Assembly: GCA_017549605.1 (NCBI GenBank)
Contig: JAFYUH010000045.1
Coordinates: 1 to 35,522 of the forward strand
Reading direction: 5' to 3'
DNA length: 35,522 nucleotides
Origin: Bacteroidales bacterium
Lineage (GTDB): Bacteria; Bacteroidota; Bacteroidia; Bacteroidales; F082
In this document: positions 1,246-15,993 of the stretch, piece by piece
Numbering within the stretch: position 1 is the stretch's first letter
Layout: each line of letters begins with the position of its first letter
Made by a program: the position numbers and the translations under genes
Notes under the pieces: model-generated
Seen by the model: only the letters and a program-made list of their open reading frames with translations
What the model was told of the DNA's origin: nothing
Database searches by the model: none

Positions 1246-4200
1246 ATGAAAAGAATCTTTACTTTAATGTTTGTCCTTGCAGCTGCTTTTTGTGGCTTTG
1301 CTCAGGACAGAAACAATGAGGATGAAGTTGTAAAAATTGACTTTATGAATCATTACAATTCTGTTGAAGGGGAAATCATTGTCAAGTTTGCTGACAACAG
1401 CTCTTTCAGACTGGATTATGATAGAAACGACAATCTGCGCACTACAGGCATGAGCTCTGTCGATAAGGCATTTGAGAAGTTTAATGTTACTTCTATCAAA
1501 CAGCTTTGCCCAAGCGATGAGAAGAGACGCGATTTCCGTACTTCAAAGAGCTATAATGGTGCTGATGTTGTTGAACGTGACCTAAGCCGTCTTTGCTTGG
1601 TGAAGATTGAACCAGATGCAAGCAGAGCACAGGATGCTGATTACAACATACAAGCTCTCACACAAGAACTTATTGAGACCTTCAATGAGATGGAAGAAGT
1701 TGAGTTTGCGGAGCCAAACTTTATTATGTACGCTTTGGGCGTAGAGACACCAAGTCTCCAAGTCTCCAAGACACCAAGTTATGAGGGAGATGAAACCAGA
1801 GATCCTAGTTATGAATATTTTGGCTACAAAACTTATAGAAAAGAACCATACTATAGCAAACAATGGGGCATTACTGCTACAAAAATTAATGAGTTATGGC
1901 AGGCTTATGAAGAAGATTATGATGAAAAACCTAATACAGACCGTCCTGTTATTGCTATCCTTGATACAGGTGTTGATATTGAACACCCTGACCTTAAAGA
2001 TAATATCTGGACCAATCCTAATGAAATAGGCAACAACTATGATGATGACAAAAATGGTTTTAAAGATGATATTCATGGATGGGATTTTGTAAACAAGACA
2101 GGCGACGTACGTGACTACAACAGCCATGGTACACACTGTGCTGGTATTGCTGCTGCTGTTGGTGACAACGGCAAAGGTATTGTAGGTGCTAATCCTAATG
2201 CTTATATTATGCCTATTACAGTTTTACAAAGCAATGGATCTGGAGCTATCTCAACTCTTATTGAAGGTGTTAACTACGCTAAGAACAATGGCGCTGATAT
2301 TATCAGTATGAGTCTTGGTACATACGCTTACTCAATAGCTCTTGAACAGGCATTGGCACAGGCATACCAAAATAGTGTTCTTGTTGCAGCAGCTGGTAAT
2401 GATGGCGCTTATATCGACCCAAGATGTACACCTCCTGGTGTTCCTTCTGGTGCAATGTACCCTGCAGCATTTACTTTCGTACTCGGTGTACAGGCAACAC
2501 AGGAAAAAGCAGGGGACTGCGGATATCTTGCTTGTTTCTCTAACTACGACTGTGACGGTCCTTCATTCTCTCAATATAGTGAGGAACAATTATATAATTA
2601 CGAGTTGTCAGCTCCTGGCGTGAAGATTATTAGTACTATACCTAATGGTAAATATAAAGAGTTAAATGGTACCTCAATGGCATGTCCTTTAGTTGCTGGT
2701 GGTATTTCAGCTCTTATGGTTGCTAAAGAATATCCTTCACAGGAAATGCTCTGGGGTGATCTTATAAACTATTCTGGTAACCATGTCGACTTTAAAGCTT
2801 GTTATGAGGCAGGACCAGCGCCAGCTCAATTGCAAATGGTTACATATCAGTTGACAGATGAAGAAGGCGACGGCGACGGACGCCCAGATGCCGGTGAGAC
2901 AATGTATTTATATCCTACATTACGTACAACATGGGGCGCAGCAGAAGATATCACATACTGGCTCGAATTTGACGAATATGAAGACGACAGAACTATAGAA
3001 TTTATTGAAAATGATAATATAGACTTCGGACATAATCTTTCAGCTTACGCCAAGAGCAAGGCTGTTAACCCTATTAAGTTAAAGATATCTGATAATGTTG
3101 TTGATGGACGTTATATAAATTTGGTCTTGAAAGCAGCTTGTACTAATGCTGAAGAAGTTATGGAATATCCATTTACAATACAAGTTGAAAACGGAGTTGA
3201 ACTCAAAGGTCTTATTGATGATGATATGACTCTCAGCCCTAATGTTCATTATATTGTTACAGAAACTCTCGGTGTTACAGAAGGTACAACTCTTACTATC
3301 TTGCCTGGTACTGTGATAAAATTTAAAGATGGCGTAGCATTACATAATAATGGTAAAATAGTTGCTAAAGGTGAACCTGGCAATATGATTACATTTACAA
3401 AGACTGACTTGGGCGTTAGTTATTATGATTTGAATCTAAGACATAATGACACCTTGTCTTATTGTATAATAGAATATGCTAATATTAAGCAAAAGACTTC
3501 TTCAACTCATTATTTCTGCTTTGAAGAGGGTGATGAAGAACATGCTTATTTTGCTCAAATCTTAGGAGATAATGTAAGCGATGTGGGTATAGCATATACA
3601 AAAACATGTTTGATTGATAATTGTGTCTTGAGATATAACAGAACTATAGGTTCATTTAATATTACAAATTCTAATTTGGTATATAATAACACAAATTATA
3701 ATCCAGTTAGTCTTCCTACATTCTCTACAGGTATTAGTTCATATTATTACCATCCTTCAATTATAAGTGCAAGTAATAATGTAATTGAAAATTATTATAA
3801 TTCTAGTAATAAGACATATTATAGTAGCAGTAATAAATTAGGTCATGTGTTGCTGGGTAATGTTTATAGCAACTACATTGCTAATAGTTATGGTAATATG
3901 GTTTCACCTTATAATATTGGAACTACAGGTAATGAAATGATTAAGTTGTCTGCCAAAGGAACTTACCTTGGTTCTTCAAAGGATGAGATCATTAGCAATA
4001 GTATATATGATATAAATACTCCTAATTCAACATCTCTTAATGACATTGAAGCAAGTACAGCAGAACGTCGTCCAGCAGTGTTAGCTCATGGTATCGTTTG
4101 GAAGGTTCTCGTCAATGGCAAGGATGCTCAGGATGAGTTTGAGGAAGTCACTCCTTTAGGTGTTGGTCGTCATAAGTTTGAGGTTTATTTCAACAGACCA

Positions 4201-5541
4201 ATGAACACATCTGTAGCTCCTATGGTGGCAATGGGTGTGCGTCCTCCTTATACTCAGAATGCTATCGCAACAGATGGCTGCTGGAATGAAGATGGTACAA
4301 TTTATACTGTATATCTGGATTTAGACGCTTCAGCAGTGACAGACGGTCTCAACCGTATCTATGTGGCTAATGCGGAAGACAACGAATATTTTGAAATTCC
4401 TTTTGAAAACAAGCGCTTCAACGTACAGGTTGCTGCTGCTGGTTCAATGAGTACAGGCTTTGAGGCTACAGCTGGCATCGGCAAGATTGAGTTGAAATGG
4501 GAAAATGATTCTACTTATTTCAATGACCACCTCGGCTGGAATATGTATCGTTATCAGAAAAATGAAAGAGGTAATACTGATACTATTCTCATCAATAAGG
4601 AAATGATAACAGACACAGTGTTTACAGACTTTGATGTCGTTCCTGGTGAACGTTACTACTATTATTATAAGACATTGCGTACAAACCTCACAGAGAGTGA
4701 AGCTTCTAGAAATGTTTCTACTGTTCCTCTTACAGCTCAGCCTGGTGATGCTAACGGCAGCTTGAAGGTTGACGTGGCAGATATCGTTACTGTGGTGGCT
4801 TATATCACAGGTGATGCTCCTCAGCCTTTTATCTTTGGTGCTGCAGACATTAACGGCGACGGTGAAATTGATGTTATGGATATCGTTAGAATAGTTAATA
4901 TCATAGTGTCTGGCAGAGCTGATGCTGATAATGCTTCTCAAGCTACAGCTAAATATTCTATAGTGGATGGTATCTTGTATGTTGACACTCCTGTAGAACT
5001 TGCTGGTGTACAGGTTTACTTTAACTGCAACGAAAGCAATATTATCGAGCCTCTCATGGCAATGGATAAGTTTGAACAGGTCGGTCAGTTTGTTGATGAC
5101 GGAAGATATATGTTCATGGCTTATAGCCTAAGCGGTGAAAAACTCAGCCCTGGCAAACACGCTATCTTGAGAATTAATGGCGCTGCCGATTTGGATGACA
5201 TGATTCTTGCAGATGCATTGGGTGCAAATGTTCTCGCAATAGAAGAGTCAATGGGTATTGATGATAATGAAATATTCTTCCTCAATGCGGCTTATCCAAA
5301 TCCATTCAGCAATAGCATTACAATACCTTATATAATAGGCGCAAATGAAGGCGAAGTCTGCTTGAGCATTACTAATGTTATGGGTCAGGAAGTGGAAAGG
5401 GTTTCATTCGGCAAGCAGAGCTGCGGAGAATACAGTTATGAATGGCAACCTAAGTCAGATGCTCCAACCGGTATATACATTATTAATATGTATGTCAACG
5501 GAAATATGATGCATAGAGAGAAAGTAGTTTATATGAAATAA
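1246..5541 (+). CDS. Secreted S8 (subtilisin-like) protease with dockerin and T9SS sorting domain
   Basis: A 1431-residue exported serine protease, probably surface-anchored. Residues 1-19 are a signal peptide ending GFAQ, and about 20-165 are a propeptide-like region. The S8 domain spans about 205-515 with Asp240 (ILDTGVD), His294 (HGTHCAG) and Ser477 (GTSMACP); the oxyanion Asn is in AAGNDG. The catalytic triad is intact. Next come beta-rich segments, including a beta-helix-like stretch rich in Asn/Tyr (about 690-940). A type I dockerin with two Ca-binding repeats follows (about 1166-1223: GDANGSLKVDVADI and ADINGDGEIDVMDI). After it is a small cohesin-like region, and from about 1340 a T9SS CTD with the usual AYPNPF motif and GIYIINMYVNG near the end. 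Residues 166-179 are encoded by a repeat also found in the following spacer. It is the first gene of a four-gene run; the next gene encodes cohesin-like domains. The physiological substrate is unknown. Confidence 0.92.
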   Translation: MKRIFTLMFVLAAAFCGFAQDRNNEDEVVKIDFMNHYNSVEGEIIVKFADNSSFRLDYDRNDNLRTTGMSSVDKAFEKFNVTSIKQLCPSDEKRRDFRTSKSYNGADVVERDLSRLCLVKIEPDASRAQDADYNIQALTQELIETFNEMEEVEFAEPNFIMYALGVETPSLQVSKTPSYEGDETRDPSYEYFGYKTYRKEPYYSKQWGITATKINELWQAYEEDYDEKPNTDRPVIAILDTGVDIEHPDLKDNIWTNPNEIGNNYDDDKNGFKDDIHGWDFVNKTGDVRDYNSHGTHCAGIAAAVGDNGKGIVGANPNAYIMPITVLQSNGSGAISTLIEGVNYAKNNGADIISMSLGTYAYSIALEQALAQAYQNSVLVAAAGNDGAYIDPRCTPPGVPSGAMYPAAFTFVLGVQATQEKAGDCGYLACFSNYDCDGPSFSQYSEEQLYNYELSAPGVKIISTIPNGKYKELNGTSMACPLVAGGISALMVAKEYPSQEMLWGDLINYSGNHVDFKACYEAGPAPAQLQMVTYQLTDEEGDGDGRPDAGETMYLYPTLRTTWGAAEDITYWLEFDEYEDDRTIEFIENDNIDFGHNLSAYAKSKAVNPIKLKISDNVVDGRYINLVLKAACTNAEEVMEYPFTIQVENGVELKGLIDDDMTLSPNVHYIVTETLGVTEGTTLTILPGTVIKFKDGVALHNNGKIVAKGEPGNMITFTKTDLGVSYYDLNLRHNDTLSYCIIEYANIKQKTSSTHYFCFEEGDEEHAYFAQILGDNVSDVGIAYTKTCLIDNCVLRYNRTIGSFNITNSNLVYNNTNYNPVSLPTFSTGISSYYYHPSIISASNNVIENYYNSSNKTYYSSSNKLGHVLLGNVYSNYIANSYGNMVSPYNIGTTGNEMIKLSAKGTYLGSSKDEIISNSIYDINTPNSTSLNDIEASTAERRPAVLAHGIVWKVLVNGKDAQDEFEEVTPLGVGRHKFEVYFNRPMNTSVAPMVAMGVRPPYTQNAIATDGCWNEDGTIYTVYLDLDASAVTDGLNRIYVANAEDNEYFEIPFENKRFNVQVAAAGSMSTGFEATAGIGKIELKWENDSTYFNDHLGWNMYRYQKNERGNTDTILINKEMITDTVFTDFDVVPGERYYYYYKTLRTNLTESEASRNVSTVPLTAQPGDANGSLKVDVADIVTVVAYITGDAPQPFIFGAADINGDGEIDVMDIVRIVNIIVSGRADADNASQATAKYSIVDGILYVDTPVELAGVQVYFNCNESNIIEPLMAMDKFEQVGQFVDDGRYMFMAYSLSGEKLSPGKHAILRINGAADLDDMILADALGANVLAIEESMGIDDNEIFFLNAAYPNPFSNSITIPYIIGANEGEVCLSITNVMGQEVERVSFGKQSCGEYSYEWQPKSDAPTGIYIINMYVNGNMMHREKVVYMK
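1741..1782 (+). repeat. In-frame CACCAAG/CTCCAAG repeat inside the protease gene
   Basis: Within the protease ORF, DNA built from CACCAAGT and CTCCAAG units encodes VETPSLQVSKTPSY (residues 166-179), between the propeptide and the catalytic domain. The same units form the large hairpin after this gene's stop (5540-5616). This suggests a spacer-type repeat was inserted, or expanded, in frame in a linker. Confidence 0.7.
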
Positions 5542-8057: not shown

Positions 8058-10376
8058 ATGAAAAGAATTTTAGTTATTCTAATTTTATTAATATCTAAAT
8101 TAGCTTATCCGATAGAGCAGTATTGGTATGCCAATGAGAAAGCTTTCGAGCATAGCATGAATGTTACCGCTACGATTTATGTGGATAATGAGGAACAGCA
8201 GAATGAAATGTTGGAACTGGCGGCTTTCTGTGGTAAAGAACTGAGAGGTAGCGCATTGCCAGATGTGTCTATTGTGACTGACAAACTCGTTTATTCACTT
8301 ACCGTTTATGGCAATGAGGATAACGAACCATTGACATTCAAATTATATGACCATTCCGCAAATAAAGAGTCAGAATTGATATGTTCACAGACTCTGGAAT
8401 TCAGAATAAATGGAATTATTGGAGATGCTATCACTCCATATATAGTCTGTTTTAAAGAACCAACACCTTGCTTTACAGGCAATGGCTCTTGGAATGAAAG
8501 CTCTAATTGGGAAAATTCAAAAAAACCTACAGCCGAGACTGATGCTATTATAGATGGTGATGCTGTCATCAATGGAAATGTGACGGTTAATTCTTTAGTG
8601 ATTAACGAAGGCAAATCGCTTACAATAGAAAATGGTGCTGTGTTAACTGTAAATGGCACTTTGACAAATACTGATGTAAATGCATTGGTGCTTGAAGAAG
8701 GCGGACAGATATTCCAGAATAGCGATAATGTGGCTGCAACATTCAGAAATAATATAGAAAATCCAACAGGTAACTGGGGAGAAGAGGACAAGACCGGCTG
8801 GCAGTTCGTTGCTTCTCCTGTATCAAATGCAAACGTCAACGGATTTATACCTGCAAGCGGAGACTACGACCTTTATATGTATGACGGTACAAAAGAACAG
8901 CAATGGGTTAACTTCAAACAATTGGGCTCTGTGTCTTACGACTTCAGTTCAAATCCTTTCAATAATGGATGGACTAGCATCGATGCTGATGGGGATGGAA
9001 ACGACTGGACATATCAATCACGTTCTAAATATATGTATTCTGTTACCTATAATGATATGTTGGGTGATATTTATGCAGAAAATTACTTTGTCTCTCCAAA
9101 AATAAGCATCAGTGATGGAACCATGTTGAGTTTCAAAGTACGTTGTACTAATAATGAATTTTATCCGGAAACGTTTAAAATACTTTTGTCTGAAGGTTCT
9201 AATACCCACCCAGATGATTTCAATATTGAAGTGGAAAATTATATCATAGAAAATACTTCATTTCAAACTTACACTTATGATTTAAGCAAATATGCTGGCA
9301 AAGATGTCTATGTGGCATTTTATCATTATGTGGCTCCTGAAAATTTTGGTTCGGAACAACTGATTATAGATGACGTTGAATTTATTAACGAAAACTATTT
9401 CGAAAGCGGCAGAGGATATCTCGTCTCATATCAGTCAGAGTCTGTTTCAGATTTCAAGGGTGAACTCAACAATGAGCCTTCATATAAAATAAAGACAAAT
9501 GCTTATTCATCATCTGACAATCTCGCAAACTTCAGTCTTTTAGGCAACCCATATCCATTTGACATTGACTGGAAAGCTAATGTTGCTGTAGAAGGCGTCT
9601 ATGACGGCTATGCTATGGTTGATAGCAAGGACGGAAGCTACAAATACTACACAGACGGCTTTATCAGAACAGGCGAGGGCTTTATGGTAAAATCTGTCGA
9701 CGGTTCAAATAACGAAGTGACAATCTCGAAAACAAAAACAAGAAGCCTTGCAGAAGATAGCTATATTAACATAGTGTCAACTGGCAAGAACGGCAGCGAC
9801 AACCTCATCATCCGTTTCGGCGAAAATGAGAATGGCGGATTCCAGAAAATGGAAAACTTCAACAAGGGTGTTGCATTGCTGTATGTCAATGACGACAAAT
9901 ACAGCTATGGTATCTACAGCTATAGCAATGACGTTACAGAGATACCAGTGCATTTTGAAGCAAAAGAAATGGGTACATATACATTGACATTCGATATCCA
10001 AGGTGAGTTTGAAAGCCTTTATCTGTTAGATAAGGCAACTGGCGTAAGTGTCAATATGCTTTTAGAAAAAGAATATTCATTTATGGCAAATGCCAATGAC
10101 CTGACATCACGTTTCGTTATTACAACTAACGTAGGTACTACTCCAGACTCAGTACAGAATTTTGTTTATGTCAGCAATTCGGAATTGATAGTTAACGATA
10201 TCAATGGCAATGCTGCTATAAATATTTATGATGTCTTGGGACGTTGCGTTTATGAAACCAACTGTACAGATGCCATGAATCATATTTCAATGGAAGTCTT
10301 TAATGCCGGAGCCTATATCATTCAGAAAATAGATGATAAAGGTGTCAGAACACAGAAGTTTGTATTTAACAGATAA
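8058..10376 (+). CDS. T9SS-exported protein with nested cleaved-adhesin domain and sorting domain
   Basis: 772 residues. The signal peptide is about 1-18. An N-terminal beta domain (about 19-135) contains AAFCGKELRG and the pattern LTFKLYDH, common in Bacteroidetes secreted proteins. About 137-245 is a short G8/beta-helix-like stretch (GNGSWNESSNW, then repeated VNG turns). From about 247 comes a GWQFVASPVS domain that resumes at ESGRGYLVSY (about 447). Between those halves (about 299-442) sits a segment resembling the cleaved-adhesin family of gingipain haemagglutinins (NNGWTSIDADGDGNDW ... ENYFVSPKISI ... DLSKYAGKDVYVAFYH ... LIIDDVEF). A T9SS CTD covers about 702-772 (INIYDVLGRCVYE, FNAGAYIIQKID). 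The gene is 15 bp after its upstream neighbour and 9 bp before the next, so an operon is likely. The role is probably surface binding or adhesion; the ligand is unknown. Confidence 0.82.
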   Translation: MKRILVILILLISKLAYPIEQYWYANEKAFEHSMNVTATIYVDNEEQQNEMLELAAFCGKELRGSALPDVSIVTDKLVYSLTVYGNEDNEPLTFKLYDHSANKESELICSQTLEFRINGIIGDAITPYIVCFKEPTPCFTGNGSWNESSNWENSKKPTAETDAIIDGDAVINGNVTVNSLVINEGKSLTIENGAVLTVNGTLTNTDVNALVLEEGGQIFQNSDNVAATFRNNIENPTGNWGEEDKTGWQFVASPVSNANVNGFIPASGDYDLYMYDGTKEQQWVNFKQLGSVSYDFSSNPFNNGWTSIDADGDGNDWTYQSRSKYMYSVTYNDMLGDIYAENYFVSPKISISDGTMLSFKVRCTNNEFYPETFKILLSEGSNTHPDDFNIEVENYIIENTSFQTYTYDLSKYAGKDVYVAFYHYVAPENFGSEQLIIDDVEFINENYFESGRGYLVSYQSESVSDFKGELNNEPSYKIKTNAYSSSDNLANFSLLGNPYPFDIDWKANVAVEGVYDGYAMVDSKDGSYKYYTDGFIRTGEGFMVKSVDGSNNEVTISKTKTRSLAEDSYINIVSTGKNGSDNLIIRFGENENGGFQKMENFNKGVALLYVNDDKYSYGIYSYSNDVTEIPVHFEAKEMGTYTLTFDIQGEFESLYLLDKATGVSVNMLLEKEYSFMANANDLTSRFVITTNVGTTPDSVQNFVYVSNSELIVNDINGNAAINIYDVLGRCVYETNCTDAMNHISMEVFNAGAYIIQKIDDKGVRTQKFVFNR

Positions 10377-10385
10377 TAAGCAGCT

Positions 10386-10637
10386 ATGAAAAAGTATATA
10401 ATAACAGCAATGGTTGCATTAGGATTTATAATGAATGCCAGTGCGCAGAGTGACGGATTCTTCAATTATTCCAATACAGAAGAAAGAAACACCACCTGGA
10501 TGGGAGGCGCGCCAAACCTTCCATCATCCCATGGCAACACTAACGACCAGTCTGTTCCATTAGGTGGCGGATTGCTTATCCTGACAGCCTTGGGAATTGT
10601 TTATAAAATTAAAACCCGTAGAGATGCTTCAATGTAA
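10386..10637 (+). CDS. Small exported protein with C-terminal hydrophobic/basic tail; 3' end formed by a REP element
   Basis: 83 residues. The signal peptide (MKKYIITAMVALGF... ending ASAQ) is followed by about 35 polar residues rich in Asn, Thr and Ser. A hydrophobic helix comes next (VPLGGGLLILTALGIVY) and then basic residues KIKTRR. This signal peptide / short linker / hydrophobic helix / basic end design is common in small Bacteroidales proteins next to T9SS cargo and resembles a membrane-retained sorting tail, but I know no defined function. It begins 9 bp after the cleaved-adhesin gene, which supports translation as part of that operon. The last codons (R-R-D-A-S-M-stop) lie within a degenerate copy of the 52-bp REP pair found around the RAYT gene, so the original C-terminus may have been altered by that insertion. 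Confidence 0.7.
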   Translation: MKKYIITAMVALGFIMNASAQSDGFFNYSNTEERNTTWMGGAPNLPSSHGNTNDQSVPLGGGLLILTALGIVYKIKTRRDASM

Positions 10638-10669
10638 CCATAAAAATAAACACTCATTGACACCTCTCA
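10618..10669 (+). repeat. Degenerate 52-bp REP pair outside the main arrays
   Basis: The left arm GTAGAGATGCTTCAATG (10618-10634) and right arm CATTGACACCTCTCA (10655-10669) flank a TAACC...AAACACT spacer. This matches position for position the 52-bp units at 13835, 14092 and 14955, with about 7 differences in 52 by hand alignment. It overlaps the last codons and stop of the preceding small gene. Confidence 0.8.
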
Positions 10670-10710
10670 AGAAATACAAAACGAAAATTAACCAATAAAA
10701 TAAAAATATT

Positions 10711-13700
10711 ATGAAAAGGTATTTATTAATAGTAATGTGCTGTTTGTTCGGATTATATCAGCCATTACACTCACAAAACAATGAAGTGAACGGTCACGAA
10801 TGGGTTGACCTTGCCTTGCCTTCAGGATTGAAGTGGGCGACATGTAATGTGGGAGCGAAGACTCCAGAAGCCAGCGGTAATTGTTATGCTTGGGGGGAAA
10901 TAAAGACCAAGGATGAATACAATGAAGCTAATAGCTTGACATACGGAATAGAAATGAATGACATCAGCGGAAATGTGCAATACGATGTGGCGGCTGCTAA
11001 CTGGGGCGAAGGCTGGAGAATGCCAACATTGGATGAAATGCAGGAACTGATAGAATGCTGTATTTGGGAATGGACAAAGCAGAATGGAATAGGAGGTTAT
11101 AATATTATTGGACCCAATGGTAATAGAATATTCCTTCCATCTTCGGATTCTAAATCTGGTTCAAATTTTTCTAGTGCTACTTGTGGCCATGGCAGTTATT
11201 GGACATCTACACCGATTTACAATACAGCGGCTCGCTATCTTAGTTTCTATAGCAACAACAGACAAGAGTTGGAATATAGTAATTCTCGCAGTAATGGTCT
11301 TGCAATTCGTCCAGTTTGTGATATTATGGAAAAGCCAATAGTATTAACATCAATTGAGAGTTATACAGATTTAACAGCAATAATAAAGACATTTGTTTCA
11401 AGCAGTTCAGCAATAACAGAACGTGGTTTCTATTATGGAACAAATCCAGAACCAGCAGATACAGACAATAAAGTTGTTTTGGAAAATGAAGTGGGATATA
11501 AAACAAATGTATTATTGGGTTTAATACCAAACACCACATATTATGTAAAGGCATACGCTGTAAATGAATCCGGTACTTCATATAGTGAGGTGGCTTCATT
11601 TACAACATTGGAAAAAATAGAATATGAGTATGTAGACTTAGGCTTGCCATCAGGCTTGAAATGGGCAACGCATAATATTGGAGCCACAGCAGCGGAAGAA
11701 TACGGTAACTATTACGCATGGGGTGAAGTATTGACAAAAGACGAATATACAGAAAAGAATAGCTTGACATACAATAAGCCGATGGATGACATCAGCGGTA
11801 CAGAATACGATGCGGCTACGGTTAATTGGGGAGATGAGTGGCGTATGCCAACATACGGTGAAATGAACGAACTGATATATAAATGTACATGGACATGGAC
11901 AACGCAAAATGGCGTTAATGGCTATAAGGTTGCTTCAAAAGTGAATAGCAACAGTATCTTCCTTCCTGCTGCAGGTAGCAGTGGCTCCTATTGGAGCTCT
12001 ACGCCTAGAAAGAATAGCAGCGCCTACTACCTCTACTTCTATAGCAGTACTCACGGCGTGAGCGAAGACGGCTTACGCTACCGCGGTTGCACCGTTCGTC
12101 CTGTTCGAGAAGTTGTTGAAAAACCAACTGTATCGGCATCTGTAGAAAATTATACAGATTTAACAGCAATAATAAAGACATTTGTTTCAAGCAGTTCAGC
12201 AATAACAGAACGTGGTTTCTATTATGGAACAAATCCAGAACCAGCAGATACAGACAATAAAGTTGTTTTGGAAAATGAAGTAGGATATATAAGCAATACA
12301 TTGATTAATTTAACACCAAATACCACATACTATGTAAAAGCATACGCTACTAACAGCGAAGGCACTTCATATAGTGAAGTGGTATCTTTTACAACATTGG
12401 AAAAAATAGAATATGAATATGTTGATTTAGGTTTGCCATCAGGCTTGAAGTGGGCAACACATAATATCGGAGCTACAACCCCAGAAGAATACGGAGACTA
12501 TTTCGCGTGGGGTGAAGTAGTAACAAAAGATGGATACACAGCTGACAATAGTTTGACATACGGTAAGCCGATGGATGATATCAGCGGTACAGAATATGAT
12601 GCAGCTACAATTAACTGGGGTGGAGACTGGAGAATGCCAACATACGGTGAAATGAACGAGCTGATAAATAATTGTACATGGACAAGGACGACACAGAAAG
12701 GTGTTTATGGCTATAAGGTTACATCAAAGACAAACGGTAATAGTATCTTCCTTCCTGCTGCTGGTTGTCGCAGTGGATGGGCGGTTAATACTGCTGCTGG
12801 TAACGAAGGCTACTATTGGAGCTCTAGTCCTAATAACGGTAACTCCTACTATCTCATCTTCATAAACAGTGGTCTTAGTGTGACCTATGGAAATTATCGC
12901 AACAGCGGTTATTCTATCCGTCCTGTTATTGAGGTGGTGGAAAAACCAACTGTTACAGCATCTGTTGAAAACTATACAGAAAAAACCTCAATAATTAAGA
13001 CTTATGTTTCAAGCAGTGCAGAGATAACAGAACGAGGTTTCTACTGGGGAACAAATGCAGAGCCAAGTGAAGCAGACAATAAGGTTGTTTTGGAAAATGA
13101 AGTGGGATATAAGGTAAGTGCTTTGATGAATTTAATCCCAAACACTACATATTATGTAAAGGCATATGCTACAAATGAATCTGGTACTTCATATAGCGAG
13201 GTGGTTTCATTTACAACATTGGAAACACTGGTAGAATATGAGTATGTAGACTTAGGCTTGCCATCTGGCTTGAAATGGGCAACGCATAATATCGGAGCCA
13301 CAGCAGCGGAAGAATACGGTAACTATTACGCATGGGGTGAAGTATTGACAAAAGAAACATATACCGAAGCCAACAGTGAAACATACGGAAAATCTATGAG
13401 TGACATCAGCGGTACAGAATACGATGCGGCAACTGTAAATTGGGGAGATGAGTGGCGTATGCCAACATACAATGAAATGTATGAGCTGATGAATAATTGT
13501 ACTTGGACATGGGTAACACAAAATGGCGTTAATGGCTATAAGGTTGCTTCAAAAGTAAACAGCAACTATATTTTCCTTCCTGCTGCAGGTTATCGCAATG
13601 GGGCATCGCTTAATCTTGCAGGTAGCTATGGCAACTATTGGAGTTCTACGCCGCACTACGATACCAACGCCAACGTCCTCTACTTCAATAGTAGTAGTCA

Positions 13701-13758
13701 CGACGTGGGCAACGACCTTCGCTACAACGTTCACTCCGTTCGTCCTGTTCGAGAATAA
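10711..13758 (+). CDS. Exported protein with four FISUMP domains; candidate DGR-type variable protein
   Basis: 1015 residues. The signal peptide is about 1-22 (ends PLHSQ). Four copies of the Fibrobacter succinogenes major paralogous (FISUMP) domain lie at about 28-206, 304-467, 567-741 and 842-1015. Each has VDLGLPSGLKWATHNIGA, a YAWGE motif, DISGTEYDAA, WRMPTYGEM, IFLPAAG, a YWSS motif and a closing SVRPV. They are joined by three fibronectin-III-like modules (about 208-303, 468-566, 742-841; ERGFYYGTN, NTTYYVKAYA). FISUMP belongs with the C-type-lectin-like folds used by known DGR variable proteins. Framework DNA is nearly identical between domains 2 and 4 (120/122 bp at 11620-11741 versus 13234-13355), yet the YWSS-to-SVRPV segment differs at 18 of about 40 codons. 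No T9SS CTD is visible. It lies 73 bp after the secreted-protein operon and is closed by a terminator. Likely role: surface ligand binding. Confidence 0.85.
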   Translation: MKRYLLIVMCCLFGLYQPLHSQNNEVNGHEWVDLALPSGLKWATCNVGAKTPEASGNCYAWGEIKTKDEYNEANSLTYGIEMNDISGNVQYDVAAANWGEGWRMPTLDEMQELIECCIWEWTKQNGIGGYNIIGPNGNRIFLPSSDSKSGSNFSSATCGHGSYWTSTPIYNTAARYLSFYSNNRQELEYSNSRSNGLAIRPVCDIMEKPIVLTSIESYTDLTAIIKTFVSSSSAITERGFYYGTNPEPADTDNKVVLENEVGYKTNVLLGLIPNTTYYVKAYAVNESGTSYSEVASFTTLEKIEYEYVDLGLPSGLKWATHNIGATAAEEYGNYYAWGEVLTKDEYTEKNSLTYNKPMDDISGTEYDAATVNWGDEWRMPTYGEMNELIYKCTWTWTTQNGVNGYKVASKVNSNSIFLPAAGSSGSYWSSTPRKNSSAYYLYFYSSTHGVSEDGLRYRGCTVRPVREVVEKPTVSASVENYTDLTAIIKTFVSSSSAITERGFYYGTNPEPADTDNKVVLENEVGYISNTLINLTPNTTYYVKAYATNSEGTSYSEVVSFTTLEKIEYEYVDLGLPSGLKWATHNIGATTPEEYGDYFAWGEVVTKDGYTADNSLTYGKPMDDISGTEYDAATINWGGDWRMPTYGEMNELINNCTWTRTTQKGVYGYKVTSKTNGNSIFLPAAGCRSGWAVNTAAGNEGYYWSSSPNNGNSYYLIFINSGLSVTYGNYRNSGYSIRPVIEVVEKPTVTASVENYTEKTSIIKTYVSSSAEITERGFYWGTNAEPSEADNKVVLENEVGYKVSALMNLIPNTTYYVKAYATNESGTSYSEVVSFTTLETLVEYEYVDLGLPSGLKWATHNIGATAAEEYGNYYAWGEVLTKETYTEANSETYGKSMSDISGTEYDAATVNWGDEWRMPTYNEMYELMNNCTWTWVTQNGVNGYKVASKVNSNYIFLPAAGYRNGASLNLAGSYGNYWSSTPHYDTNANVLYFNSSSHDVGNDLRYNVHSVRPVRE
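11361..11500 (+). repeat. Internal direct repeat, copy 1 (fibronectin-III-like module)
   Basis: This 140-bp segment matches 12150-12289 with a single difference by eye. It encodes the first half of modules 1 and 2 (NYTDLTAIIKTFVSSSSAI onward). Near-identity including silent sites points to recent duplication or gene conversion within the gene. Confidence 0.9.
11971..12111 (+). other. Candidate variable region (VR) of FISUMP domain 2
   Basis: Codons 421-467, from AGS through YWSS to SVRPV-like TVRPVRE. Compared with the corresponding part of domain 4, non-silent differences fall almost wholly on first and second codon positions of codons ending in C or T (for example TCC/AAC, TAC/GTC, CGC/AAC, TGC/CAC). 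The conserved 3' flank encoding VRPVRE is identical in DNA. This is what adenine-specific mutagenesis of AAC/AAT template codons would give. No template repeat was found in the window. Confidence 0.6.
12150..12289 (+). repeat. Internal direct repeat, copy 2 (fibronectin-III-like module)
   Basis: Second copy of the 140-bp segment at 11361-11500, offset 789 bp. The third module (from about 12966) is a more diverged copy. Confidence 0.9.
13585..13755 (+). other. Candidate variable region (VR) of FISUMP domain 4 at gene 3' end
   Basis: Codons 959-1015, the last of the gene. Relative to domain 2 it carries about 11 extra codons (YRNG... before AGSYG). From there it differs at 18 of about 40 codons, 15 of them with the third base (C or T) unchanged. 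Its position at the very 3' end of the gene, followed 45 bp later by a hairpin, matches the usual placement of DGR variable regions. Confidence 0.6.
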
Positions 13759-13799
13759 AAAGCGAAGCGTATTCAATTTATTTGATTCATTTGATTTAT

Positions 13800-13834
13800 T
13801 TCCGTCGGGGTAAAACCTCGGCGGAATTTTTTTT
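13800..13834 (+). terminator. Rho-independent terminator of the FISUMP gene
   Basis: The stem TTCCGTCGGGG / CCTCGGCGGAA (11 bp with G-T pairs) has the loop TAAAA and is followed by eight T's. It lies about 42 bp after the stop. The first REP element begins at the next base. Confidence 0.9.
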
Positions 13835-14335
13835 GTAGAGACGCGTCAATGTAACCTGAAATATAAACACACATTGACACGTCTCATGTTTTTTTGTTGT
13901 GCCGTTTTTTATATGTAAATTACATTGTTTTATTGAGACGTGTCAACGATGGTTTTTATATAATAATGATGCGTTTTTATATGTAAATTACATTGTTTTA
14001 TTGAGACGTGTCAACGATGGTTTTTATAAAATAAGGATGTGTTTTATATAAAGATTACATCGTTGACGCGTCTCTACAGGGGGATGGCAATGTAGAGACG
14101 CGTCAATGTAACCTGAAATATAAACACACATTGACACGTCTCATGGTTTTTTTGTCGTTGGTTTTATGTATGTGAATTACATCGTTTTATTGAGACGTGT
14201 CACCGATGGTTTTTGTATAATAAGGATGCGTTTTTATATAAGGATTACATCGTTTATTGAGACGTGTCAACGATGGTTTTTTGTATAATAATGATGTGTT
14301 TTTATATGTAAATTACATCGTTGACGCGTCTCTAC
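13835..14335. repeat. REP-like palindrome array 1 (downstream side of RAYT gene)
   Basis: Ten arms of two types. Type A is GTAGAGACGCGTCAATG (+ at 13835-13851 and 14092-14108; reversed at 14061-14077 and 14319-14335). Type B is TGAGACGTGTCAAYG (+ at 13934, 14002, 14191 and 14258; reversed at 13872-13886 and 14129-14143). They form two head-to-tail modules of order A+ B- B+ B+ A- (13835-14077 and 14092-14335, period 257 bp). Facing arms can pair into long stem-loops. Each arm contains the self-complementary GACGCGTC or its variant GACGTGTC. No ORF here is credible. It fills the spacer between the FISUMP terminator and the transposase stop. Confidence 0.9.
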
Positions 14336-14346
14336 AGGGGGGGATT

Positions 14347-14877
14347 TTAATACAAATCATCGTCTTTCCAATTTGCGATATTCTGTTCAATATAATTCTT
14401 TTTTGTATCAAATTCTTTTTGATTTCTGATAATTCTGTCGTGAAATCTCTCTTGCCAAGTGAAGGGAATGTCGTGTTTGTTGGCGTATTTTGTCACGGCA
14501 GATTTGTATTTTATTATAATGTTGGATAGACGACCGCATCGTTTTGAAATATCACTCATTTTTTCATTGACGTCTGTGTCGTTTTTATTTTGTTGTTTCT
14601 CGTGTGATTTGTAAACACGAATGATCAAATGAACGTGGTTTGGCATCACAACGTGTGATAATATTTGAGCGTCAGTGTATCTGTGATTTATTCTTTTTAT
14701 ATAAGAATTTGCGAAAACACCTAATGAGGATAGTGTTATTTTGCCGTCATATATTTCACCAAAATAATGTTCTCTTTTGTCTGTACAGATTGTAATGAAA
14801 TAAAATCCATAATTATAATCATGCCATTGTGCGCGAGCGGAAGGAATTCTATATTTGTTGTTAAAAAGGTCTGACAT
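14347..14877 (-). CDS. REP-associated tyrosine transposase (RAYT, Y1/HUH family)
   Basis: 176 residues, the usual RAYT size. Members of this domesticated IS200/IS605-like family nick single-stranded REP hairpins and are thought to spread them. The HUH metal motif is His81-Val-His83 in MPNHVHLII. The likely nucleophile is Tyr124 in IIKYKSAVTKY. The family signature TWQERFHDRIIRN and a terminal YIEQNIANW follow. The N-terminal NKYRIPSARAQWHDYNYGFYFITI is also typical. The gene is flanked on both sides by arrays of GTAG-headed palindromes (the nearest starts 11 bp beyond its stop), as expected for a RAYT with its cognate repeats rather than a mobile IS200. A TAATTTTG promoter lies 25 bp upstream. 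Catalytic residues appear intact. Single-strand nicking activity on these repeats is inferred. Confidence 0.9.
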   Translation of the reverse strand: MSDLFNNKYRIPSARAQWHDYNYGFYFITICTDKREHYFGEIYDGKITLSSLGVFANSYIKRINHRYTDAQILSHVVMPNHVHLIIRVYKSHEKQQNKNDTDVNEKMSDISKRCGRLSNIIIKYKSAVTKYANKHDIPFTWQERFHDRIIRNQKEFDTKKNYIEQNIANWKDDDLY

Positions 14878-14902
14878 TTTTTAAAATTTAAAGTTCTCGC
14901 CG

Positions 14903-14935
14903 CAAAATTAAAGCATCATTCCTAAATAAAAAAGT
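14903..14935 (-). promoter_or_regulatory. Promoter of the RAYT gene
   Basis: On the minus strand TAATTTTG (14910-14903) matches the Bacteroidetes -7 element TAnnTTTG and sits 25 bp before the ATG. A T-rich stretch about 20 bp further upstream could serve as a weak -33 element. Confidence 0.55.
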
Positions 14936-14954
14936 TAAAAAATGTTAAAAATCC

Positions 14955-15380
14955 GTAGAGACGCGTCAATGTGACCTGAAATATAAACACACATTGACAC
15001 GTCTCATGTTTTTTTGTTGTGCCGTTGGTTTTATGTATGAAAATGTCGTTTTTTGTAGAGACGCGTCAATGATGTAAATCATGAGAAAAAGACGAAACGA
15101 ACGTATGAAAACCATCGTTGACACGTCTCATGTTTTTTTGTTGTGCCGTTGGTTTTATGTATGAAAATGTCGTTTTATGTAGAGACGCGTCAATGATGTA
15201 AATCATGAGAAAAGACGAAACGAATGTGTGAAAACCATCATTGACACGTCTCATGTTTTTTTGTTGTTGTGTCGTTGGTTATATGTATAAAAATGTCGTT
15301 TTATGTAGAGACGCGTCAATGATGTAAATCATGAGAAAAAGACGAAACGAATGTGTGAAAACCATCATTGACACGTCTCA
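14955..15380. repeat. REP-like palindrome array 2 (upstream side of RAYT gene)
   Basis: Four A+/B- pairs. One is the same 52-bp form as in array 1 (A+ 14955-14971, B- 14992-15006). The other three are tandem units of about 125 bp (A+ at 15055, 15179 and 15305; B- at 15116-15130, 15239-15253 and 15366-15380). In these units the two arms are extended to GTAGAGACGCGTCAATGATG versus CATCATTGACACGTCTCA, and the loop carries an AAATCATGAGAAAA...GACGAAACGA sequence absent from array 1. Between units are poly-T tracts and GTTGTG stretches. The array fills most of the 556-bp gap between the RAYT gene and the hipA remnant. There is no CRISPR-like unique spacer pattern and no gene. Confidence 0.9.
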
Positions 15381-15433: not shown

Positions 15434-15993
15434 TTATGAATTAATTTTAAAGTTATCAACCTTATTCTTTATTTCTTCGAATATAAGCAAAGCCTCTTTT
15501 TTGTTAAGTCCGGCTTTTACTGCAACAGCAATTAAGTCATCTGTGGTTGGTGTGATGCTATCGTTGATTGATGTTGTGTGAAACCCATTCATGCCGTTGC
15601 TTGGAAGTAAATCGTAAGCTGGAGACAGATGCCAATTATCATTACGGTATATAAAAGAGAAATTCTTGGCATGGTCGTCTTTATTTTCTATCAGATAGTT
15701 GAACACCATCAATCTGTAAAGTCTCCATAGCTCAGCAATGCTATGTGTAAGTGCTGCACATACTTGAAATATATGTGTGTAATCAATGCTTGGGACACGA
15801 TAATCTGCACCTATCAAACCAGCTTTGCAATGAAAACGCCACTGCGTAAAGGTAACTCGAAAGGAGAAATTGAAAACCCAGAGGAAATCCATTCTGCTGA
15901 ATATTCAAATGCACATAGATGTTCTTTTGTCAATGCAAGACGACCGACCAAACGACTTTTGTAAACTACTTCTATCTGTTTTATGCTATTCAT
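15434..15993 (-). pseudogene. hipA: hipA-like toxin kinase, internally deleted and frameshifted
   Basis: The HipA N-terminal part starts at ATG 15993 (MNSIKQIEVVYKSRLVG ... GFSISPFELPLRSGVFIAK) and hits a stop just after 15820. The C-terminal part reads in another frame from about 15830 (AGLIGADYRVPSIDYTHIFQ ... NKDDHAKNFSFIY ... YDLLPSNGMNGFHTTSINDS) to the stop at 15434. A full-length HipA of this type is about 370-400 residues. The two parts together give only about 190, so roughly 180-190 residues, including most of the kinase N-lobe and ATP-binding region, are missing at the junction, with loss of frame. The catalytic-loop NKDDHAKN is still present. The start overlaps the hipB stop by 8 bp, the classic hipBA arrangement. 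It should not yield active toxin. Confidence 0.85.

What the first reader, a model, noticed from the sequence alone, without database searches (positions are those of the whole stretch)
11971..13755. DGR-like hypervariation in the FISUMP domains of a single exported protein
Seen: domains 2 and 4 share nearly identical DNA over their framework (120/122 bp at 11620-11741 vs 13234-13355) and identical DNA for the closing VRPVRE. In the segment between (11971-12092 vs 13618-13736) 18 of about 40 codons differ non-silently by hand alignment. In 15 of these 18 the third base (C or T) is unchanged while first and/or second bases change, often both (TCC/AAC, TAC/GTC, CGC/AAC, TGC/CAC). Only about four silent differences are present. 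Known: DGR reverse transcriptases mutate template adenines, so AAC/AAT codons become NNC/NNT; targets have C-type-lectin-like folds and the variable region ends the gene. Inference: this gene is, or recently was, a DGR target with up to four variable cassettes. No reverse transcriptase is in the window, so the element would act in trans.
Basis: partly seen in the sequence, partly recalled or inferred. Interest (0 to 1): 0.9.

Follow-up and report, generated by a model that had tools for sequence, protein, structure and literature searches.

The report
Lectin gene hypermutated by absent retroelement
This gut-bacterium gene encodes a secreted-type protein with several lectin-like binding domains, at least two of which carry the fingerprint of a retroelement that rewrites binding sites; two sister species keep that machinery just behind the gene, but it was not found in this incomplete genome, so the gene looks like an orphaned or remotely served hypermutation target.

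Summary
They differ non-silently in 20 of 48 aligned variable-region codons, 16 with the third base unchanged. The decisive evidence is in sister species: in G091 and G092 the orthologue is followed by a MutS-I-like ORF (G091 scanned), bAvd, template repeat (TR) and reverse transcriptase (RT), with A-only TR/VR mismatches in the best 50-bp windows. Polarised by G091's TR, D2 and D4 differ at 24/47 template-A first/second positions but 4/49 others; framework 19/226 (p=1e-10; p=1.0). Four other genus templates fit poorly. D1 and D3 are weak. Behind D4 lies a 3' element found only behind variable FISUMP genes (26 of 26 places, 12 of 99 genomes), but its hairpin is degenerate here. No cognate RT, TR or bAvd was found in the 84.75%-complete assembly; a phage-type DGR on contig C47 has a TR that does not fit. 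So: a multi-cassette DGR target, orphaned or served in trans, not a complete DGR. Precedent: Thiohalocapsa. 9 of the 12 genomes with the element lack the matching RT.

The parts
10711..13758 (+). DGR-type target gene: 1015-aa protein with signal-like N-terminus (my reading), four Lcl_C/FISUMP domains joined by three FN3-like linkers
   Evidence: orthologues in G091, G092, G071 and SUWV01000016.1
11140..11324 (+). D1 variable-region equivalent (weak A signal)
   Evidence: template-A 25/49 vs non-A 17/55, p=0.029
11965..12111 (+). D2 variable region (clear DGR signature, internal; lacks 11 codons of D4 between TGCAGGT copies)
   Evidence: template-A 22/47 vs non-A 2/49, p=7e-7
12754..12933 (+). 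D3 variable-region equivalent (weak A signal)
   Evidence: template-A 20/50 vs non-A 13/66, p=0.014
13579..13755 (+). D4 variable region, ends the gene (clear DGR signature)
   Evidence: template-A 18/52 vs non-A 5/66, p=2.5e-4
13761..13800 (+). conserved 3' element found behind variable FISUMP genes
   Evidence: 26 places in 12 of 99 genomes, all 26 behind such genes; reversed-pattern control 0
13802..13824 (+). hairpin at the place of the DGR target hairpin, degenerate here: CCGTCGGGG TAAAA CCTCGGCGG (2 of 9 pairs are G-T only), followed by a T run
   Evidence: perfect arms of 7 bp or more in 21 of 26 places, not in this one
11338..11617 (+). FN3-like linker 1 (60/60 with linker 2 in one block)
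12127..12406 (+). FN3-like linker 2
12949..13233 (+). FN3-like linker 3
1246..5541 (+). subtilase (S8) protease; synteny marker, directly upstream of the target in G091, G092, G071 and SUWV01000016.1, separated from it here by three ORFs
14347..14877 (-). REP-associated transposase-like gene in the stretch where G091 and G092 carry bAvd, TR and RT
   Evidence: 51.8 bits, below NCBIfam's cut-off of 80

Best explanation
The gene is a target of a diversity-generating retroelement (DGR): a secreted-type chain of C-type-lectin-fold domains whose loops were rewritten by mutagenic retrohoming from an AAC/AAT-rich template. Likely course (inferred): the terminal domain in front of the 3' hairpin receives the mutagenised cDNA; duplication of domain plus linker moved earlier terminal copies inside the protein, where they persist as a small archive of binding sites (D2 clear; D1 and D3 older or drifted). 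Shown: A-restricted divergence of D2 and D4, a complete DGR behind the orthologue in sister species, domain duplication within the G000/G071 lineage. Inferred: that the cognate RT-Avd-TR module was lost from this locus or lies outside the assembly. Whether diversification continues in trans is undecided.
Against: No cognate RT, TR or bAvd in the assembly. Polarity comes from other species' templates: third positions differ from TR158 at 17 of 48 (D2) and 15 of 59 (D4) sites, and D4 has 5 non-A mismatches. G091's own C58 target fits its TR only in the 3' part; over the whole region it has 10/66 non-A mismatches. Hairpin degenerate in the window. D1 and D3 weak. No read or strain data. G091's TR was found with a query in which I had put A at D2/D4-differing sites, which favours A-rich hits; the same loci were also recovered by RT and 3' element.
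Confidence: 0.9

Rival explanations
1. Still active in trans: a cognate RT/TR lies in the unassembled part of the genome or on an unbinned mobile element and continues to rewrite D4 and the second tagged gene on contig C136.
For: Assembly 84.75% complete in 205 contigs; the C136 target keeps perfect 9-bp hairpin arms. Trans action is indicated in G091: TR on C31 vs target on C39, A 27/60, non-A 0/64, third positions 1/62. G009's dispersed VRs differ almost only at A (C53 vs C72 A 23/52, non-A 2/66) although no FISUMP TR was found in that assembly, estimated 100% complete.
Against: Window hairpin degenerate; G071, whose orthologue has a similar degenerate hairpin, also shows no matching RT. D4 and C136 differ at 15/64 non-A positions, so they share no recent template.
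Confidence: 0.35
2. Retired target: RT, Avd and TR were lost from this locus and the variable regions now drift under ordinary selection.
For: Where G091 and G092 carry Avd-TR-RT the window has a REP-type transposase-like gene and repeats; no RT relic in the window (tblastn hits above noise are the VRs); degenerate hairpin; the G071 and G086/SUWV orthologues also have no matching RT.
Against: Incomplete assembly; perfect hairpin arms survive at C136. Absence could also mean that sisters gained the module. Clear RT decay elsewhere in the genus was not established.
Confidence: 0.55
3. No DGR: paralogous lectin loops diverged by positive selection, NNC/NNT codons being a matter of codon usage.
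For: FISUMP domains are numerous and their loops vary; D1 and D3 look much like this.
Against: Non-A and third positions diverge at the framework rate while template-A positions diverge six-fold more; real templates exist in sisters and only the TR158 type fits well.
Confidence: 0.03
4. Variable regions were imported by recombination from other FISUMP paralogues.
For: Module mosaicism and paralogues on C155 and C136 show that recombination is possible.
Against: Best outside match to the D4 VR in the genome is 70% (C155); import alone would not give A restriction, so the donor would still be DGR-made.
Confidence: 0.08
5. The phage-type DGR on contig C47 of the same genome is the template source.
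For: It is a DGR with an Lcl_C-type target in the same genome.
Against: Its TR mismatches D4 at 17 of 30 and D2 at 14 of 30 non-A first/second positions at the best in-frame ungapped offset.
Confidence: 0.01

Closest known systems
   Same: Orthologous target with the same protease upstream, matching template type, same 3' element
   Different: They carry MutS-I-like ORF, bAvd, TR and RT downstream; one and three domains instead of four; perfect hairpin arms
Thiohalocapsa PB-PSB1 DGR 4/5 and its degenerate loci (PMC10907252, passages seen)
   Same: Single target gene with three tandem CLec domains bearing VRs; degenerate loci lacking machinery; trans diversification; unequal activity of VRs within one target
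   Different: Targets with vWA domains in VMAP conflict systems; here a secreted-type FN3-linked FISUMP chain
DUF1566 / Fib_succ_major DGR targets of human microbiomes (PMC4159848, passages seen)
   Same: Same or related domain at the variable C-terminus
   Different: The examples in the passages seen have one terminal variable domain; systems without RT are mentioned there only as a result of fragmented assemblies; tandem cassettes are not mentioned in those passages
BPP-1 DGR target site with IMH and hairpin (PMC3240598, passages seen)
   Same: GC-rich inverted repeat downstream of VR whose stem sequence may vary
   Different: Here loops of mostly 6-12 nt instead of 4, hairpin about 43 nt behind the stop codon, after a conserved AT-rich stretch

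Membership tests
DGR target gene (VR-bearing) | VR differs from a TR almost only at template adenines | tested here: met
   Met for D2 and D4 against a sister-species TR only: D2 A 22/47 vs non-A 2/49, D4 18/52 vs 5/66; D2-D4 24/47 vs 4/49. D1 and D3 weak.
DGR target gene (VR-bearing) | C-type-lectin-fold variable domain with VR at the 3' end of the gene | tested here: met
   Pfam Lcl_C; model and C-type lectin matches; D4 VR ends the gene. D1-D3 are internal.
DGR target gene (VR-bearing) | Inverted repeat/hairpin downstream of VR | tested here: inconclusive
   Element present at 13761-13824 but 2 of 9 pairs are wobble only
Complete DGR | Cognate reverse transcriptase in the same genome | tested here: not met
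   PF00078 and L158-RT searches: only the C47 RT, 30% identical; assembly 84.75% complete
Complete DGR | Cognate template repeat in the same genome | tested here: not met
   (all candidates scored): VR-type and chance matches only; C47 TR does not fit. In one search only 8 of 14 candidates of this genome were scored.
Complete DGR | Accessory Avd-type protein in the same genome | tested here: not met
   No match for the L158 bAvd in G000 at E 0.01; a distant Avd would be missed
Active DGR target | A-restricted variation between strains or reads | not testable with these tools
   No reads or second strain of the species were available to me

The most novel reading that the evidence does not exclude
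In this genus a dispersed, hairpin-tagged set of lectin receptors is diversified in trans by a DGR core that is often absent from the chromosome bins (lost repeatedly, or carried on an unbinned mobile element); related variable lectins are fused to TIR and kinase domains; and tandem duplication of the terminal domain turns successive rewrites into an archive within one secreted polyvalent protein.
Probability: 0.3. Interest if true: 0.75.

Novelty: new member of a known kind. Interest (0 to 1): 0.58.

Why it matters
It shows, in a herbivore-gut Bacteroidales genus, a DGR target family that can be recognised without its RT: by template-A-restricted divergence and by a conserved 3' element with a hairpin. 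9 of the 12 genomes that carry the element show no matching RT, 5 of them among the 8 that are at least 90% complete and at most 5% contaminated, which makes 'lost, remote or mobile DGR core' a testable question. The tandem, in-lineage duplicated domains give a case where non-template sites act as an internal clock for hypermutation.

Tried and rejected
Tried: PF09603 (Fib_succ_major) search of the own genome gave no match; the Pfam model that fits is Lcl_C, PF07603. A-only TR/VR scan of window 9000-15000 found no TR (its two hits are framework and intergenic repeats). From the 54 RVT_1 places of a 60-genome draw I took the loci of 26 that looked non-intron-like and scanned them; A-only pairs appeared at 12 loci (G000:C47, G009, G001, G064, G024, G033, G026:C2, G066, G082:C22, G018, G074, G061). 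The C47 TR and four genus FISUMP templates (G033, G026, G082:C6, G117) fit the window poorly; the other TRs were not tested codon by codon. The fitting templates (G091, G092, G087) came from the all-genus search. No RT relic in the window. PDB by sequence for D4: no match. TR pattern in viral contigs: 0 hits. The L158 RT has five relatives of 45-50% and one of 26% in viral contigs and only matches under 60% in named phage records (108 records), so no phage copy of this element was found. Papers: 3 hold diversity-generating retroelement plus Fib_succ_major, none holds it plus FISUMP; no paper held the exact orphan or lost-RT phrases that I tried, but 'degenerate' loci are described in PMC10907252. 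The library lacks bioRxiv and most subscription papers.

Considered and rejected: the C47 element as template; codon usage (framework and third-position controls). The hairpin covariation (4 of 9 pairs changed on both sides) rests on few arm types, so on few events. I had first read RT matches in G026, G082, G085 and G099 as decay; one search does not bear this out: the stops of G026 and G082 lie between TR and RT frames, the G082 C-terminus continues in another frame, the G099 piece lies at the end of the locus held, and G085 shows only the C-terminal part.

Caveats: 44 template-domain comparisons were made; TR158 fits best and is quoted. Other alignments give D2 21/45 vs 2/51. Framework controls, A vs non-A: win D2-D4 9/84 vs 10/142, L163D3-winD4 9/76 vs 29/148, L163D3-winD2 9/76 vs 34/148, L158D1-winD4 17/76 vs 40/144, win D3-D4 11/81 vs 19/145. 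The flank listing missed in-frame stops and was redone (14 of 93 ends); the G091:C31 flank was added by hand. The first framework tree lacked G071 D2; one search has all 13 domains and no longer shows window D2 and D4 as an exclusive pair.
Full report
WHAT IS THERE. The window is the whole of contig C22 of a 2.53-Mb, 205-contig assembly, 84.75% complete (contig length). The gene 10711-13758 encodes 1015 aa: a signal-like N-terminus (my reading) and four Lcl_C/FISUMP domains with three FN3-like linkers. Over the whole framework D2 and D4 are 88% identical and mosaic. D2 lacks 11 codons of D4 between two TGCAGGT copies.

OWN GENOME. The only RVT_1 match is on C47: a DGR with Lcl_C-type target and A-only TR/VR pair on a contig with tape-measure-like and integrase-like ORFs (my reading). 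Its TR does not fit the window: 17 of 30 non-A first/second positions mismatch for D4 and 14 of 30 for D2 at the best ungapped offset. DNA searches with the D4 variable region (E up to 10) and with an inferred template found no TR; the L158-type bAvd was not found.

SISTER SPECIES. An all-genus search (99 genomes) led to G091, G092 and G087. In G091 (L158) the order is protease, 202-aa single-domain target, MutS-I-like ORF, bAvd, TR in frame at the start of the RT ORF, RT. In G092 (L163) the target has three domains and is followed by near-identical ORFs, TR and RT. TR vs VR in the best 50-bp window, A / non-A: G091:C58 10/0, G091:C31 13/0, G087 11/0, G092 6/0 for D3 and 9/0 for internal D1. 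Over whole codon-aligned regions (first/second positions) the fit is looser: non-A mismatches 0/43 (G092 D3), 2/43 (G092 D1), 2/66 (G087) and 10/66 for G091's C58 target, which fits its TR only in the 3' part; G091:C31 1/64. The window's protease 1246-5541 is the protease directly upstream of the target in G091, G092, G071 and SUWV01000016.1, so the window gene is their orthologue; here three ORFs lie between.

THE KEY TEST. With G091's TR as outside polarity, first/second-position mismatches are D2 22/47 at A vs 2/49 elsewhere (p=7e-7), D4 18/52 vs 5/66 (2.5e-4), D3 20/50 vs 13/66 (0.014), D1 25/49 vs 17/55 (0.029). D2 against D4: 24/47 at template A, 4/49 at non-A, 19/226 in the framework; third positions 7/48 vs 23/113. 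So non-A and third positions of the variable region diverge at the framework rate (p=1.0 and 0.51) and only template-A positions are accelerated (p=1.2e-10). Five framework pairs show no marked excess at A. As specificity control, four other genus templates (G033, G026, G082, G117) mismatch D2 and D4 at 17-25 non-A positions. G091 was found with an A-filled query, a possible bias; the loci were also recovered by RT and by the 3' element.

TIMING. The framework tree groups window D2, D3, D4 with G071 D2 (100/99), apart from D2 and D3 of G092 and G086 and from the D1 domains. The extra domains arose, or were homogenised, in the G000/G071 lineage, and their variable regions differ by template-A changes since.

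3' ELEMENT. Behind the stop codon lies a 40-bp element and a hairpin. Its pattern (up to 3 mismatches) occurs 26 times in 12 of 99 genus genomes, 0 times for the reversed pattern, and all 26 lie right behind FISUMP genes with a variable-type end. It does not mark all such genes: 14 of 93 distinct FISUMP ends in the loci then held had it. Perfect arms of 7 bp or more exist in 21 of 26; the window is one of the five without. On 15 aligned elements (14 distinct) 96.8% of pair cells are standard pairs and 4 of 9 pairs change on both sides, from few arm types. In BPP-1 such a hairpin behind VR is required for efficient homing and its stem sequence can vary (PMC3240598, passages). All 26 variable regions, chosen by the element and not by the VR, are enriched for template-A mismatches against TR158 (each p below 0.005).

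TRANS ACTION AND ORPHANS. G091's TR on C31 matches a target on contig C39 with A 27/60, non-A 0/64, third positions 1/62, best read as trans action. G009's targets on C53 and C72 differ at 23/52 A and 2/66 non-A positions, yet no FISUMP template was found in that assembly. Of the 12 genomes with the element only G087, G091 and G092 have an RT of the L158 type (70% or more identical); the G084 match is a target end, not an RT. 5 of the 8 that are at least 90% complete and at most 5% contaminated lack it. In this genome a second tagged gene on C136 keeps perfect 9-bp hairpin arms.

HOW IT WORKS. Shown: A-restricted rewriting in D2 and D4, complete DGRs behind orthologues, duplication in the lineage. 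Inferred: homing into the terminal domain, archive by duplication, loss or remoteness of the core. Not shown: present activity, ligand, surface location.

KNOWN OR NEW. DUF1566/Fib_succ_major domains are known DGR targets (PMC4159848, passages). Multiple VRs in one ORF were reported for 31 of 271 multi-VR DGRs (PMC6642488, passages). Thiohalocapsa has targets with three tandem VR-bearing CLec domains, degenerate loci and trans action (PMC10907252, passages). The window is thus a new member of a known kind, a DGR target without its core; it is not filed as a complete DGR because RT, TR and Avd were tested and not found.

NAMES. This is inference.

Noticed in passing
L002:11429-14630 (own genome, contig C47:23428-26629): DGR (target, TR, RT) in a phage-like region of the same genome, with A-only TR/VR mismatches in the repeat.
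   Followed up: partly
L162:5362-6900 (-), genome G087 contig C90: TIR domain fused to a FISUMP domain whose loop is A-biased against a DGR template of another genome (TR159: A 24/60, non-A 5/64): a variable-type lectin on an immune-type domain.
   Followed up: partly
L114:3256-5355 and 10752-12251 (+), genome G033 contig C16: Two protein kinases fused to FISUMP domains both match one adjacent template, beside an RT, with A-only mismatches.
   Followed up: partly
L073:3103-7080, genome G009 contig C6: A 751-aa protein has a FISUMP variable-type domain followed by an FGE-like domain (my reading); the only A-only template found beside the RT matches the latter.
   Followed up: partly
L134:4391-4819 (-), own genome contig C136: Second FISUMP gene with the 3' element in this genome; only 142 aa, apparently missing the first half of the domain.
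   Followed up: partly
window 10386-10637 (+): Small secreted-type protein (QSDGFF ... GGLLILTALG ... KTRR) directly upstream of the target; similar-looking small proteins stand before or inside other FISUMP genes (L011, L073, L116; by eye); no Pfam or NCBIfam match.
   Followed up: no
window 13834-15004: Interspersed repeats (46 and 68 bp) around a REP-type transposase-like gene; similar stretches on contig C155 (L137) and in G009 (L077, L078).
   Followed up: no
L183:1420-1689 (-), genome G117 contig C67: AAC-rich FISUMP template-like sequence with a variable-type FISUMP gene in the same locus; no RT-core match in the stretch held.
   Followed up: no
G085:C47:32126-32758 and G082:C6:29095-30264: RT relatives that look incomplete: only the C-terminal part in G085, and a C-terminus in another frame in G082.
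   Followed up: partly
L164:3986-7602 (-), genome G092 contig C7: FISUMP gene with the 3' element, near a KAP-family NTPase gene; its VR fits TR158 at A 21/52, non-A 3/66.
   Followed up: partly
window 15434-15892 (-): HipA-like fragment (weak NCBIfam match, far below cut-off).
   Followed up: no
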